Origin: Sipunculus nudus
Taxonomy: Eukaryota; Annelida; Sipuncula; Golfingiida; Sipunculidae
Length of the DNA: 64,000 bases
NCBI GenBank assembly: GCA_026874595.1
Contig: CM049322.1
Span: 34,625,840-34,689,839 of the forward strand
Direction of reading: 5' to 3'
A program made the translations under genes and the position numbers. Position 1 is the stretch's first letter. The number at the start of each line of letters is the position of its first letter. Under the pieces are notes generated by a model that made no database searches, was not told the DNA's origin, and saw nothing but the letters and a program-made list of their open reading frames with translations. Below, in pieces: positions 43,181 through 47,435 of this stretch.

Positions 43181-44350
43181 TCAGATATCGGTGCACGTTG
43201 TGTTCGTGATGGTGGCCTGACGTTTGAGCGGAAGTCGTACGCTGGTACCTCCGTTTCGGTTCTTCTCACCATAGCGACGGCACACGAAACACATGGTGTC
43301 CCACATGGCCCGACGGAAGTGAATGTTCATGACGTAATATAACACAAAGTTGAAGGAAAAGTTCACGCACTGCATGACGTTCGTAATCTCCACAGCCAAA
43401 ACGTATCCAACTAGTACATCTGTAATGTCTTTTAAGAACAGGATGATTTCGGCTGGAGTTACAAGGGCAATGTACATAACCACAATAATTACAAGAATGG
43501 GAGTGATGCGGTGGTTTGATTCCAGCTGAGGACCTCGGACACCACATCGCCGCCGCAAGTTTGTGGACTCGTGCAGCGCTCTCATGAGGCAAATGTTGCA
43601 AAACGCAAGCATGGCCAACGGGATTAGGATCCCAAACACAAAATAAACCCACATATAAATCGTGTACCCGCTCCGAATAGTAGGCTCAATAATAGGATTC
43701 CGGGTGTAGAGAAATTTGCCGTCTTGGCAAGGAATGGTGTCAATTTCATTATTAAAGAGCATTTTGGGAATATTGAACAGGAAACATGACACGAAAACGG
43801 AAGGGATCATAATTTTCGTCGTGCGCATGCTGATAAAATGTCGGCATCGGAATGGATGGCAGATTGCTAAATAGCGACCCGTTGCCATGGTGACGGTTAG
43901 CCACGTGCTCGTCATAATGAAGGCGTTGATGATGGCACCACTGTACGTACGATAGAGCAACTGAAACGAAAGCGAGTCGAAAATCCACGGCTCCTCAGCG
44001 AATAATCCATTGGGTAGGAGAGACACACAGAAAAGGGTATCCGAGACTGCCAATGCGACGAACCCCATATGGACGCTCCGCTCCGTACTACTGCATGTCG
44101 ATTTCAGTCTTTTACGATTTAAAATGATTAGGGTGAGTAAATTTCCAATCATCCCTATAACACACAGACAAGGGACCAAAACCCGACGAAGCACAAAAAC
44201 GACACCTGTTGGCGGATCTCCGAAATGGAATCCCATTCCCGTTGTACAGTTCAGAAATCTGTCACCACCCATCTGGACACTCTGGTCGCTCATGTTGCCG
44301 TCTAGCGCCGAGTAGTTGAAGCTCATCAGTTGATTCACGTTGAAAGGCAT
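43181..44350 (-). CDS. rhodopsin-family (class A) peptide-type GPCR, single coding exon
   Basis: Seven-helix G-protein-coupled receptor of 389 residues in the plasma membrane. The N-terminus (1-50) has NYS, NMS and NCT glycosylation sites. TM1 carries GNLLTLIIL (Asn70), TM2 FVALAVSDTLFC (Asp104), TM3 ends GRYLAICHPF in place of DRY, TM6 has ALVTPAEII and TM7 ends NFVLYYVMN in place of NPxxY. The combination, and LAICHPFRCRHF, resembles invertebrate FMRFamide-type and related neuropeptide receptors; the ligand is unknown. Oddity: position 3.25, normally Cys, appears to be Arg134, while ECL2 keeps a Cys (208), so the usual disulfide may be absent. The start GCCAAAATGC is a good Kozak context. 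A splice acceptor (ttatctttcag) lies 33 bases upstream, suggesting a 5' UTR intron. Frame intact. Confidence 0.9.
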   Translation of the reverse strand: MPFNVNQLMSFNYSALDGNMSDQSVQMGGDRFLNCTTGMGFHFGDPPTGVVFVLRRVLVPCLCVIGMIGNLLTLIILNRKRLKSTCSSTERSVHMGFVALAVSDTLFCVSLLPNGLFAEEPWIFDSLSFQLLYRTYSGAIINAFIMTSTWLTVTMATGRYLAICHPFRCRHFISMRTTKIMIPSVFVSCFLFNIPKMLFNNEIDTIPCQDGKFLYTRNPIIEPTIRSGYTIYMWVYFVFGILIPLAMLAFCNICLMRALHESTNLRRRCGVRGPQLESNHRITPILVIIVVMYIALVTPAEIILFLKDITDVLVGYVLAVEITNVMQCVNFSFNFVLYYVMNIHFRRAMWDTMCFVCRRYGEKNRNGGTSVRLPLKRQATITNTTCTDI

Positions 44351-44383: not shown

Positions 44384-44903
44384 CTGAAAGATAAAGAGCT
44401 ATGTTTAATAAACGGGCATCATGAAGAAAGTTAGGGTATTAGTCTGATATTGCTGGCTTTGTCGGTTGTATAATTGTTAATACACTTTGCCCTCCTGGCC
44501 TTCAAGACCTGTTTATTTTTGCACCCTTTCTCGGCCCCATGGAAGAAAACGGCTAAAACGTGTTATAATAAGTGCTATAATCTTAGTAATTCTGCAATCC
44601 GCTTGCCGTCACTGGCCAATATCTACTTAATCTTGGGTAACGACTTCGCACCTATGTCATAAAGACTTCCGGGAGGGATGTTAGCTAAGAGAACAGCCAG
44701 AACTTGACTCGAATGCACAATCTTGTAGTCACAGGTCTAGAGGTTTCCTGTCTGGTTTCCTTCTAAGTAAAACTGACACTGACACAGTGATATTTTCTGA
44801 CTCATTGAAATATAGCTTACGCAAATATGGTAAAATGTTCCGGTTTACATTTTACATTTCGTCATACAGCCATATTAACGTTCATTTACAAACTCCTATA
44901 AGA

Positions 44904-45059
44904 TGTTACGGGGTGACATAAAAGCGGACCGAACTGTCTCGATAGTGAAGCTTGCTTTGCTAGCGAAGCGGTTGGTACGCCGGACTTGTGCGCCACCGAC
45001 CTGGGTTCGACTCGCAGATCGGCCCAGGATTTTCCCCTCATTTATTTGTCTTCGTAACA
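44904..45059 (+). repeat. LTR1 of TRIM-like element, with tRNA-like pol III promoter
   Basis: 156 bp, TGTTACG...CGTAACA. A-box match TAGCGAAGCGG at 44961-44971 (fits TRGYNNARNNG). B-box GGTTCGACTCG at 45004-45014 (10 of 11). The A-to-B start distance is 43 bases, as in tRNA genes. A T-arm-like stem surrounds the B-box. Confidence 0.78.
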
Positions 45060-45179
45060 AAATGGGGGCTCGTCTAACGTGACGGTTAACTTTGTGGCCC
45101 AGGGAATAAGCTCACCAAAGTGTGACTTCTGAGATAATTAGTCTTCTTTTTGATAGCAGAACGCTCTTAAGAAGGGGTG
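45060..45179 (+). repeat. internal domain 1 of TRIM-like element
   Basis: 120 bp without coding capacity. TGGGGGCTCGTC at 45063-45074, three bases after LTR1, is complementary to the 3' end of tRNA-Pro (same start as the murine leukaemia virus primer site). It ends with the purine tract AAGAAGGGG (45169-45177), two bases before LTR2. Confidence 0.75.
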
Positions 45180-45225
45180 TGTTACGGGGTGACATAAAAG
45201 CGGACCGAACTGACTCGATAGTGAA
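45180..45225 (+). repeat. LTR2, left part (split by LINE)
   Basis: First 46 bp of an LTR, starting TGTTACG and ending TCGATAGTGAA (45215-45225), the left copy of the LINE target duplication. Confidence 0.8.
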
Positions 45226-46044
45226 CTCGCCGCCGGCACACCGCAGGGCTCAGCTCTCAGCCCGCTGCTCTGCGTCATATACGTCAACAACATGCCTAGC
45301 CTGTCCGAGAAAGGGGGAGTCCGCACGGGGGCGACGAGCCAATTTGCGGACGATACTGCGCTATGGACACATAGCAAGAGAGCAGTACCCAGGCTACAGG
45401 CAGGTCTAGACGAAGTGACAAAGTGTTGCGCCAAATGGCGGGTAAGAGTCAATGCGACAAAAACGCAGGCTTGCAAGTTTGGTAGGCACCAGAAAGGCAA
45501 TAAGGCCGGCAAGGCACCAGAACTGAAATTGGCCGGGGAACCAATTCAATTCACAGACCAGATAAAATTTCTGGGACTGACGGTTGATAAGAAACTCACA
45601 TGGGTGGCTCACATAAAGGATATCGAACAGAGGTTCAAAGCGAGACTAAACTGCTTAAGAGTGCTAAAAGCAGGGACAGGTGGCATGTCAACCCAAAGTT
45701 TGATATACCTTTATAAAGCCTGGATCAGACCGGTTATGATGTACGGTTGCATAGCCCTGATCTCAGCCAAAGAGCACCACATTAAGAAACTTCAACGGCT
45801 TCAAAACAGAGCCTTAAGGACGGCCTTGAGACTCCCGCCTCGAACCCGAGTATCTGTGCTTCACGAAAAGGCAGAAATAGAATAGGTTAGCGATCACATT
45901 CTAAGGTTGAGCAAAGGCTATGTCGAAAAGGTGAAGCAAGAGAAGTTCTACACAGACCTCAAAATGTGGCTCGACTGGCAAAAGATCAGTGGTAAGCGGA
46001 ACCCCAGTATCATCACCCCACTAGAGAAAGTGGGGGAGGGGTAG
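45226..46044 (+). pseudogene. reverse transcriptase fragment (LINE ORF2 C-terminal half)
   Basis: Contains FADD (two catalytic Asp) and the thumb/C-terminal region typical of Jockey/CR1-type elements. The N-terminal half is lacking and there is one in-frame TAG at 45883. The second half (VSDHILRLSKGYVEKVKQEK) remains readable, suggesting relatively recent insertion. Confidence 0.85.
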
Positions 46045-46669
46045 AAAGGCTCCGGAGCTCTGCAGCGCCCGACTGCAAAAGTAAAATACGGGCCGTCCAT
46101 CGGATGAGGACGTAAAATGGCCGTCCCGTGTCCAGAAGGGGATGGGCACGTAAAAGACCCCATACTGTTTTTCGATAGAAGAGTAGGCCAGCCTGTTGCC
46201 GGCAGTATGGAACCAAGCCCTGTAGAGCCAGCCGTTTGGTGGATAAAAGTTGAGGGGGTCCCGAAAGGATCAGGGACAAGGCTCCGAGACGTAAAAACCG
46301 GGGGTCCGGTTAGGACCAGCAGGGACAAGGCTCAAGCATGATGGCACAAGCACCAGAGAAGGCTCCCGAGAAGGCTCCGATCGAACGAAAACTGTACCTG
46401 GTCGAAAGGGACAGGGCTCAGGGCGGGACTTACGGTAGTCCAGGGGTAGTCCGGTGGCGCTCTGACGTTACTGGCAGGTTGCTAGGCTCAGGCTCCCGGG
46501 AACACCTGGGGGAGCCCCCGGTGGTAGAAGGTCAGCGAGGGCGGGCCGGACCTGGCTGGCTGGCGTGTCAGTTCTGGCGACCTCAGTGCAAAGAGAGGGA
46601 TACCCGAAGAGGCAAAACTGCGGCGTAAAAACCCTAGTTATTGCCTGAGCGGTGAAACTGGCATGTATG
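45226..46669 (+). mobile_element. 5'-truncated Jockey-superfamily non-LTR retrotransposon fragment
   Basis: A 1444-bp insertion flanked by an 11-bp duplication TCGATAGTGAA (45215-45225 and 46670-46680). It begins in frame inside the reverse transcriptase domain (AAGTPQGSALSPLL, the TPQGSxLSPxL motif) and continues through the catalytic motif QFADDTALW, the FLGLTVDKKLTW motif and the C-terminal RPVMMYGCIALIS...LQRLQNRALR region. A TAG stop interrupts at 45883-45885, after which the frame continues to about 46044. The remaining 0.6 kb is a non-coding 3' region with no poly-A tail. The endonuclease and upstream RT are missing, so the copy is dead on arrival. Confidence 0.85.
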
Positions 46670-46680
46670 TCGATAGTGAA

Positions 46681-46790
46681 GCTTGCTTTGCTAGCGAAGC
46701 GGTTGGTACGCTGGACTTGTGCGCCACCGACCTGGGTTCGACTCCCGGATAAGCCCAGGATTTTCCCCTCATTTATTTGTCTTCGTAACA
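46681..46790 (+). repeat. LTR2, right part, with A- and B-box
   Basis: Final 110 bp of the split LTR, ending CGTAACA. A-box at 46692-46702. B-box GGTTCGACTCC at 46735-46745 is a full match to GGTTCGANTCC. The LINE inserted upstream of both boxes, so this promoter is physically intact. Confidence 0.8.
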
Positions 46791-46910
46791 AAATGGGGGC
46801 TCGTCTAACGTGACGGTTAACTTTGTGGCCCAGGGAATAAGCTCACCAAAGTGTGACTCCTGGGATAATTAGTCTTCTTTTTGATAGCAGAACGCTCTTA
46901 AGAGGGGGTG
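46791..46910 (+). repeat. internal domain 2 of TRIM-like element
   Basis: 120 bp, three substitutions from internal domain 1. Primer-site-like TGGGGGCTCGTC at 46794-46805; purine tract AGAGGGGG just before LTR3. Confidence 0.78.
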
Positions 46911-47065
46911 TGTTACGGGGTGACATAAAAGCGGACCGAACTGTCTCGCTAGTGAAGCTTGCTTTGCTAGCGAAGCGGTTGTACGCCGGACATGTGCGCC
47001 ACAAACATGGGTTCGAATCCCGGATCGCCCCAGTATTTTCCCCTGAACAATTTGTCTTCGTAACA
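46911..47065 (+). repeat. LTR3 of TRIM-like element
   Basis: 155 bp, TGTTACG...CGTAACA. A-box 46968-46978; B-box GGTTCGAATCC 47010-47020, a full consensus match. It is the most diverged of the three LTRs and is followed by the AAGA target duplication. Confidence 0.78.
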
Positions 47066-47435
47066 AAGAACTCATGAAATGCTGGAAATTTAAATAAAAA
47101 ATTAAACACAATAATTATGTAATAGATACACAATGAGTACTGTTTTAGGAATATTCAATATTTACAAACACATTGACGGTTTTCTTTAACTTTGAATGTT
47201 TGATTCCTTTTTGGGGGGGGGGGGGGGGGCTGACATGAAGAGTTTTGTTTGCAAAAGAATGTTCAATGATATTTGCATTTTCTTAAGTTATTCATTTACA
47301 CTTTTTTGGTGTTCTGTACACAAGTATAAATATTAGGCAGGTGAGCAAACCCTCTCTTCATATCCTCTCCTAGTGAGCCATTGTGCTGATAATACTACAA
47401 TGAGCTTCCTGCTGGGTGAGGGTACGCTGGCGCGC

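What the first reader, a model, noticed from the sequence alone, without database searches (positions are those of the whole stretch)
44904..47065. TRIM-like retroelement whose LTRs carry a tRNA-type pol III promoter
Seen directly: three LTR-like repeats (TGTTACG...CGTAACA, 155-156 bp), 120-bp internals, a TGGGGGCTCGTC primer-site-like motif three bases after each LTR that is followed by an internal, a purine tract before the next LTR, and a 4-bp AAGA flank duplication. Every LTR also has TAGCGAAGCGG (A-box) and GGTTCGANTCC-like (B-box) 42-43 bases apart. Known: plant Cassandra TRIMs carry a 5S rRNA-derived pol III promoter in their LTRs. Inference: this is an animal counterpart with a tRNA-derived promoter, possibly a SINE head captured as an LTR. 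I know of no described animal example but could not search.
Basis: partly seen in the sequence, partly recalled or inferred. Interest (0 to 1): 0.88.

Follow-up and report, generated by a model that had tools for sequence, protein, structure and literature searches.

The report
Helenus-type TRIM and its Gypsy partner
The repeat is a tiny parasitic retroelement whose ends carry a tRNA-like promoter, a kind already described in 2024, but hybrid and folded-back copies in the same genome point to the larger retroelement that copies it and show how that copying can go wrong.

Summary
In detail: window 44904-47065 is LTR-int-LTR-int-LTR between AAGA duplications, with a non-LTR fragment inside LTR2. 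The genome holds a large family; 23 of 42 non-duplicate copies have the same four bases on both sides, against 4.6 by shuffling. The class is known: Helenus/TRIMp3 (Kojima 2024, PMC10886601), with 4-bp duplications in animals. My searches showed no report of direct evidence for how an animal Helenus is mobilised. Here a Gypsy with integrase before RT shares LTR tips, PBS and a similar PPT with the TRIM. Exact patterns gave 16 hybrid LTR/internal junctions beside 502 pure ones; 7 of the 16 were read and confirmed, one with duplication ATGC. A joint of copied tRNA-Pro with an inverted TRIM LTR occurs: of 91 pattern places (0 in control) I read 37: 18 such foldbacks, 14 primer-tRNA read-throughs, 3 tRNA-Pro genes, 2 unclear. 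Six of 9 assessable foldback insertions have 4-bp duplications. Six of 14 read-throughs end within one base of the stop before G37. Pol III use is untested.

The parts
44900..44903 (.). 5' target-site duplication AAGA
44904..45059 (+). LTR1, 156 bp, TGTTACG...CGTAACA
44961..44971 (+). A-box-like TAGCGAAGCGG in LTR1
45004..45014 (+). B-box-like GGTTCGACTCG in LTR1; TTTT (possible pol III terminator) follows at 45030
45063..45074 (+). primer binding site TGGGGGCTCGTC, 12 nt complementary to the 3' end of tRNA-Pro-CCA
   Evidence: host tRNA-Pro genes
45060..45179 (+). internal region 1, 120 bp; purine tract at its 3' end (45169-45179)
45180..45225 (+). LTR2, first part
45226..46669 (+). non-LTR retrotransposon fragment inserted in LTR2, 11-bp duplication TCGATAGTGAA (45215-45225 and 46670-46680); not part of the TRIM
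46670..46790 (+). LTR2, second part (A box 46692, B box 46735)
46791..46910 (+). internal region 2, 120 bp, PBS at 46794
46911..47065 (+). LTR3, 155 bp (A box 46968, B box 47010)
47066..47069 (.). 3' target-site duplication AAGA

Best explanation
[quoted passage not shown] A tRNA-like segment in the LTR probably recruits pol III (inferred). The RNA is packaged with, and copied by, the enzymes of a Gypsy element with integrase upstream of RT (Gmr1-type order) that uses the same primer, tRNA-Pro (supported by shared ends and by chimeras). Copies insert with a 4-bp duplication, often at ATAT (shown). Because Gypsy and TRIM share the PBS, plus-strand strong-stop DNA of one sometimes transfers to the other, giving chimeras. 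Because the LTR contains a tRNA-like T-arm, strong-stop DNA ending in copied tRNA-Pro sometimes anneals there instead and is extended back to the LTR start, giving foldback copies that still integrate (the products are shown; the mechanism is inferred).
For: Family: first-look candidates 1867 for the LTR and 1116 for the internal, 40 of each scored; 367 exact LTR/internal junctions, 0 in control. TSDs: in 23 of 42 arrays the four bases on both sides agree, shuffle mean 4.6, largest value 10 in 2000 shuffles; 16 of these 23 are not ATAT. In 35 adjacent pairs, LTRs of one element are more alike than reshuffled pairs: 0.906 vs 0.892, reached in 0 of 2000 shuffles. Partner: 3' LTR TGTTACA...CCGTAACA, 771 bp in L081; PBS TGGGGGCTCGTCCGGGAT in L072 and L073, one base different in L076; PPT AGGAGGGGGAG; integrase domains in L206, RT and RNase H downstream in L081. 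Chimeras, exact patterns: TRIM LTR+Gypsy internal 9, Gypsy LTR+TRIM internal 7, pure Gypsy 135, pure TRIM 367, 0 in all controls; alignment confirms the 7 of 16 that I hold (L200-L205, L050). L207+L201 is Gypsy LTR-TRIM internal-TRIM LTR with TSD ATGC, the order expected of a mistransferred strong stop. Foldbacks: 91 pattern places with up to 3 mismatches, 0 in control; 37 read: 18 have an inverted TRIM LTR piece right of the joint, 14 are tRNA read-throughs, 3 tRNA-Pro genes, 2 unclear. Exact 4-bp TSDs in 6 of 9 assessable insertions: L070, L085, L087, L090 yes, L086 and L092 no; L094/L118 and L096/L119 yes, L088/L117 no. tRNA-Pro copied beyond the PBS follows a TRIM LTR in L064, L098, L102, L109, L111 and the Gypsy LTR in L099, L107, L108, L112, L114.
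Against: No RNA data: pol III use is unproven. The B box is not better conserved than the rest of the LTR (100 of 146 11-mers are at least as conserved; A box 36 of 146), and both consensus boxes are intact in 57 of 95 LTRs. 89 of 95 LTRs hold a run of 4 or more T, so pol III would have to read through it in the 5' LTR; the window's own internals also carry TTTTT, though 39 of 46 internals have no such run. 19 of 42 arrays lack the matching four bases. The partner rests on LTR tips, PBS, PPT and chimeras; no wider LTR similarity was shown. Some chimeras may descend from one founder, and 9 of 16 rest on a short pattern only. Folded as single-stranded DNA, the strong-stop 3' end does not pair with its own T-arm. 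Own-arm matching in foldbacks is weak: best in 3 of 6; 39 of 720 permutations as good.
Confidence: 0.87

Rival explanations
1. The unit is a tandem tRNA-SINE moved by a LINE, and the LTR-like ends are chance.
For: tRNA-like A and B boxes with tRNA spacing; tandem arrays occur.
Against: Copies end at TG...CA tips, not at the tRNA head or a simple-repeat tail, and the duplications are 4 bp; PBS and PPT lie at the right places; LTR and internal are exchanged with a Gypsy at the LTR/PBS boundary.
Confidence: 0.02
2. A TRIM transcribed by pol II from the LTR's CATAAAAG box; the tRNA-like part is a relic or serves another role.
For: ATAAAAG is kept in 75 of 95 LTRs and the first 36 bases have the highest mean conservation (about 0.97); the B box is not specially conserved and a T-run in the 5' LTR would hinder pol III.
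Against: 57 of 95 LTRs keep both boxes and 39 of 46 internals have no run of 4 T; a TATA-like box upstream also suits pol III (general knowledge). Kojima 2024 reports conservation around both boxes across Helenus families.
Confidence: 0.25
3. Foldbacks and chimeras arose by recombination of genomic DNA after insertion, or are assembly errors, not by template switching.
For: TRIM and Gypsy copies are abundant; several mosaics are complex (L053, L202/L209, L203/L210); arms of a foldback are only weakly matched; 3 of 9 foldback insertions lack an exact duplication.
Against: Exact 4-bp duplications in 6 of 9 foldback insertions and in the chimera L201/L207; the joints read lie at LTR end/PBS or at the tRNA T-arm homology (the pattern asks for these, so this is partly by construction); some copies hold primer tRNA sequence beyond the PBS, which neither element carries.
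Confidence: 0.1

Closest known systems
Helenus (TRIMp3), Kojima 2024, PMC10886601
   Same: TRIM of 311-1263 bp (here about 432), tRNA-like sequence in the LTR, GGTTC in box B and YGG in box A, PBS and PPT, 4-bp TSD in animals, solo LTRs and tandem arrays; tRNA-Pro among bivalve primers; Gypsy inferred as mobiliser in animals from PBS similarity.
   Different: Box A reads TAGCG, not TRGCY. Here chimeric copies tie the mobiliser to the TRIM, and foldback and primer-tRNA copies are seen; the parts read (text parts 1-4 of 6 and the tables) describe neither. Sequence comparison with published families was not possible (supplement not readable).
Cassandra (plant TRIM with 5S promoter), PMC7215508 (passages)
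   Same: Pol III-type promoter in the LTR of a TRIM; long tandem arrays.
   Different: 5S-derived, plants; no autonomous partner indicated according to PMC10886601.
biv-TRIM, Satovic 2019, PMC6934838 (results section)
   Same: Bivalve TRIM with tandem arrays and solo repeats.
   Different: Repeats of 202-218 bp, internal 77-80 bp, PPT GGGGAGA in most, no unambiguous PBS.
Gmr1-type Gypsy (integrase upstream of RT), PMC8220671 (passages)
   Same: The partner copy read has integrase before RT and RNase H.
   Different: No phylogeny was made here, so clade membership is not shown.
Template-switch complexes of Triticeae LTR elements, Sabot and Schulman 2007, PMC1950507 (abstract and results section)
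   Same: Complex copies flanked by one TSD, explained by co-packaging and template switching.
   Different: Those join like elements through R; here the exchange runs through a shared tRNA PBS or the tRNA-like T-arm and also gives inverted copies.

Membership tests
Helenus / TRIMp3 | TRIM shorter than about 1 kb with two LTRs and no coding capacity | tested here: met
   156+120+156 bp unit; many copies
Helenus / TRIMp3 | tRNA-like A and B boxes inside the LTR | tested here: met
   no complete tRNA by ARAGORN and no tRNA match in Rfam up to E 10
Helenus / TRIMp3 | PBS after the 5' LTR and PPT before the 3' LTR | tested here: met
   tRNA-Pro genes of the host
Helenus / TRIMp3 | 4-bp TSD in animals | tested here: met
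   23 of 42 against shuffle mean 4.6
Helenus / TRIMp3 | working pol III promoter | not testable with these tools
   no expression data; Kojima also says that it is unvalidated
SINE | tRNA head at the 5' end, A-rich or simple tail, long TSD | tested here: not met
   copies are bounded by the LTR tips with 4-bp TSDs; 79 of 95 LTRs start TGTTAC, 71 of 95 end GTAACA
Gmr1-type Gypsy (partner) | integrase upstream of RT | tested here: met
   PF17921 and PF00665 in L206, RVT_1 and RNase H in L081 downstream; one copy read
Gmr1-type Gypsy (partner) | falls in the Gmr1 clade of a phylogeny | not tested
   no tree was made

The most novel reading that the evidence does not exclude
The tRNA-like module of the LTR acts not only as a promoter but as a decoy acceptor in reverse transcription: strong-stop DNA that carries a copy of primer tRNA-Pro anneals to the LTR's T-arm, and the resulting foldback and Gypsy/TRIM hybrid DNAs are integrated like normal copies. 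The genome then keeps a record of where the enzyme stopped on the modified primer tRNA (before position 58 and before position 37).
Probability: 0.55. Interest if true: 0.72.

Novelty: new member of a known kind. Interest (0 to 1): 0.58.

Why it matters
The kind of element is published, but in the parts of Kojima 2024 that I read the mobiliser of animal Helenus is inferred from PBS similarity alone. Chimeric insertions with target duplications point to the partner from DNA alone, and the method (searching for LTR/internal exchanges at a shared PBS) can be applied to other TRIMs, including Cassandra. The foldback and primer-tRNA copies make steps of reverse transcription that are usually studied in vitro readable in a genome.

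Tried and rejected
SINE reading: rejected on ends and TSDs. A functional tRNA in the LTR: no ARAGORN hit, no Rfam tRNA. A pol III-blocking TTTTT in the internal as a general argument: dropped, because only 3 of 46 internals have it, the window's among them. Intramolecular self-priming as a stable fold: not supported for L070 and L092. A GTDB scan with the C60 COX1 gave at most 58% identity among the 80 best. Samples are not random: best-scoring matches plus chosen pattern hits. Dropped before the count of 42: 22 chains without complete outer LTRs, the window's own array among them, and 5 with repeated flanks. Of the 91 places, 37 were read: 20, 14 (13 of them chosen for their tRNA-like ending), two in L070, one in L064.

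Full report
WHAT IS THERE. Window 44904-47065 is an array of three LTRs and two 120-bp internals between AAGA duplications. LTR2 is cut at 45226-46669 by a piece of a non-LTR retrotransposon (RVT_1 match) with its own 11-bp duplication. Each LTR has an A box and a B box at tRNA spacing; the pair occurs at these three places in the window and nowhere else, and not in 50 Markov sequences. No whole tRNA is recognised.

FAMILY. The window lies in an unnamed 1.43-Gb assembly. The first look of the search found 1867 LTR and 1116 internal candidates, of which 40 each were scored. In 60 fetched loci, some overlapping, copies occur as solo LTRs, LTR-int-LTR and longer arrays. Of 42 non-duplicate arrays with complete outer ends (22 incomplete chains, the window's own included, and 5 repeats dropped), 23 have the same four bases on both sides; shuffling the flanks gives 4.6 on average and at most 10 in 2000 shuffles. 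Seven of the 23 are ATAT, 16 are other words. ATAT/TATA flanks are frequent (17 of 42 at the 5' side, 11 of 42 at the 3' side; 3.8% background in the 1-kb flanks). In 35 adjacent pairs, LTRs of one element are slightly more alike (0.906) than reshuffled ones (0.892; 0 of 2000 shuffles reach it), which suits old copies made in one period.

KNOWN KIND. Kojima 2024 (PMC10886601; text parts 1-4 of 6 and the tables) named such elements Helenus and grouped them with Cassandra and Ajax as TRIMp3. Animal Helenus have 4-bp duplications; bivalve families include tRNA-Pro primers; the Gypsy superfamily was proposed as mobiliser in animals from PBS similarity. The element is therefore a member of a known kind. 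biv-TRIM (PMC6934838, results section) differs in sizes and PPT.

PROMOTER. Both boxes match the consensus in 57 of 95 complete LTRs; the B box is not specially conserved (100 of 146 11-mers at least as conserved), the A box moderately (36 of 146); 89 of 95 LTRs have a run of 4 or more T; of 76 LTRs with the B-box core, 61 have it 19 bases later and 11 have none after it; 39 of 46 internals have no such run. ATAAAAG is kept in 75 of 95. This suits a pol III unit ending in the 3' LTR, provided the 5' LTR run is read through, but it does not exclude pol II.

PARTNER. A search for LTR ends followed by one more base of the tRNA-Pro site gave 931 places, 0 in control; eight regions that I chose were read. 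Three of them (L072, L073, L076) are a Gypsy whose LTR ends in a GTAACA tip and is followed by the tRNA-Pro site, TGGGGGCTCGTCCGGGAT in two and one base different in L076. In L081 its 3' LTR begins TGTTACA, ends CCGTAACA, is 771 bp long and is preceded by AGGAGGGGGAG. Integrase domains lie upstream of RT and RNase H, the order that PMC8220671 (passages) gives for Gmr1. The copy read contains stops and is described only.

CHIMERAS. Exact patterns for LTR end plus internal start gave: TRIM/TRIM 367, Gypsy/Gypsy 135, TRIM LTR/Gypsy internal 9, Gypsy LTR/TRIM internal 7, 0 in all controls; 16 of 518 are hybrids. The internal starts are told apart by five bases in these patterns, so reading matters: the 7 of 16 that I hold (L200-L203 Gypsy LTR/TRIM internal; L204, L205, L050 TRIM LTR/Gypsy internal) are confirmed by alignment. 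L053 and L064 are further hybrids that the patterns miss. L207+L201 is Gypsy LTR-TRIM internal-TRIM LTR with duplication ATGC; L208+L200 has ATAT on both sides, in an AT repeat. L202/L209 and L203/L210 are more complex mosaics. The Gypsy-LTR/TRIM-internal hybrids have different PBS continuations, so they are unlikely to be copies of one founder. Transfer of plus-strand strong-stop DNA between two elements that share a tRNA-Pro PBS predicts just this order (inference).

FOLDBACKS. L070 is LTR(+), PBS, then the LTR inverted from its T-arm back to its first base, with duplication TGGC. The pattern TGGGGGCTCGTCCGGGATTYGAACCCA occurs at 91 places with up to 3 mismatches, 0 in control. I read 37 of them. 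In 18 an inverted TRIM LTR piece lies right of the joint (L070 twice, L083-L094, L096, L097, L101; L116); 14 are tRNA read-throughs; 3 are tRNA-Pro genes (L105, L110, L115); L095 and L100 are unclear. The sample is not random. Six TRIM-only foldbacks have both outer ends: four with exact 4-bp duplications (L070, L085, L087, L090), L086 and L092 without. Three have Gypsy LTR sequence on the left (L088, L094, L096): GGTA for L094/L118 and GTAT for L096/L119 match, L088/L117 does not. L094/L118 is TRIM LTR-Gypsy LTR part-PBS-inverted TRIM LTR. The joint lies in TCCGGGATT, shared by the copied tRNA-Pro end and the inverted LTR T-arm. Own-arm matching is weak (3 of 6; 39 of 720 permutations), and folding does not show the strong-stop end paired to its own LTR, so annealing to another molecule is at least as likely.

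PRIMER tRNA. ARAGORN finds tRNA-Pro genes in L105, L110 and L115. Fourteen loci hold a tRNA-Pro copy reaching beyond the PBS; the left neighbour is a TRIM LTR in L064, L098, L102, L109, L111, the partner Gypsy LTR in L099, L107, L108, L112, L114, and other or unmatched sequence in L103, L104, L106, L113. Copy ends fall within one base of the last base before G37 in L098, L099, L102, L106, L108 and L114, 6 of 14; L111 scores there too but continues after a small shift and is not counted, and L064 also continues past a shift. If ends were spread evenly over 49 positions, 6 or more of 14 in three of them has probability 1e-4 (the three positions were chosen after seeing the data). PMC13191261 (passages) gives strong-stop ends before m1A58 as the main HIV-1 product and at position 37 as a minor one, lists tRNA-Pro among primer tRNAs with m1A58, and reports m1G37 in tRNAs that read codons beginning with C. 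Whether this host's tRNA-Pro is so modified was not tested.

LITERATURE LIMITS. Searches for TRIM/pol III/tRNA, TRIM/tRNA-derived/mollusc/Cassandra, Helenus, TRIMp3, strong stop with m1A58, self-priming with inverted LTR, and Cassandra with partner and template switching listed no title or abstract that reports chimeras or tRNA-joined foldbacks of a Helenus; listings are capped and the library lacks most subscription papers. Sabot and Schulman 2007 (PMC1950507, abstract and results section) is the nearest precedent found.

VERDICT. A new member of a known kind, with unusually direct evidence on who moves it. Shown: structure, family, 4-bp duplications, chimeras, foldbacks, tRNA copies. Inferred: pol III use, co-packaging, mis-annealing at the T-arm. 

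Noticed in passing
window 43181-44350 (-): ORF of 389 aa matching 7tm_1 (E 3.1e-17) and Srw GPCR models, close to the array.
   Followed up: no
G000 contigs C60, C61, C62, C66, C72, C74, C75, C89 and C123: Full-length COX1 matches on contigs far smaller than the chromosomes. The C60 and C123 stretches read look bacterial; the C60 COX1 has at most 58% identity to the 80 best GTDB loci. The assembly seems to contain bacteria, perhaps associates of the host.
   Followed up: partly
L042-L045 (C17:38.07-38.11 Mb): Four places at 9-23 kb steps whose copies have the same outer flanks: the TRIM lies in a larger tandem duplication.
   Followed up: no
L013, L049, L055: Inverted LTR pieces joined at other places than the T-arm, pointing to further kinds of template switch.
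   Followed up: no
L071, L074: Other LTR-like elements with the tRNA-Pro site; L071 has an open stretch of 716 codons, L074 one of 551.
   Followed up: no
L041: TRIM LTR lying inside a partner-Gypsy LTR, followed by a damaged PBS.
   Followed up: no
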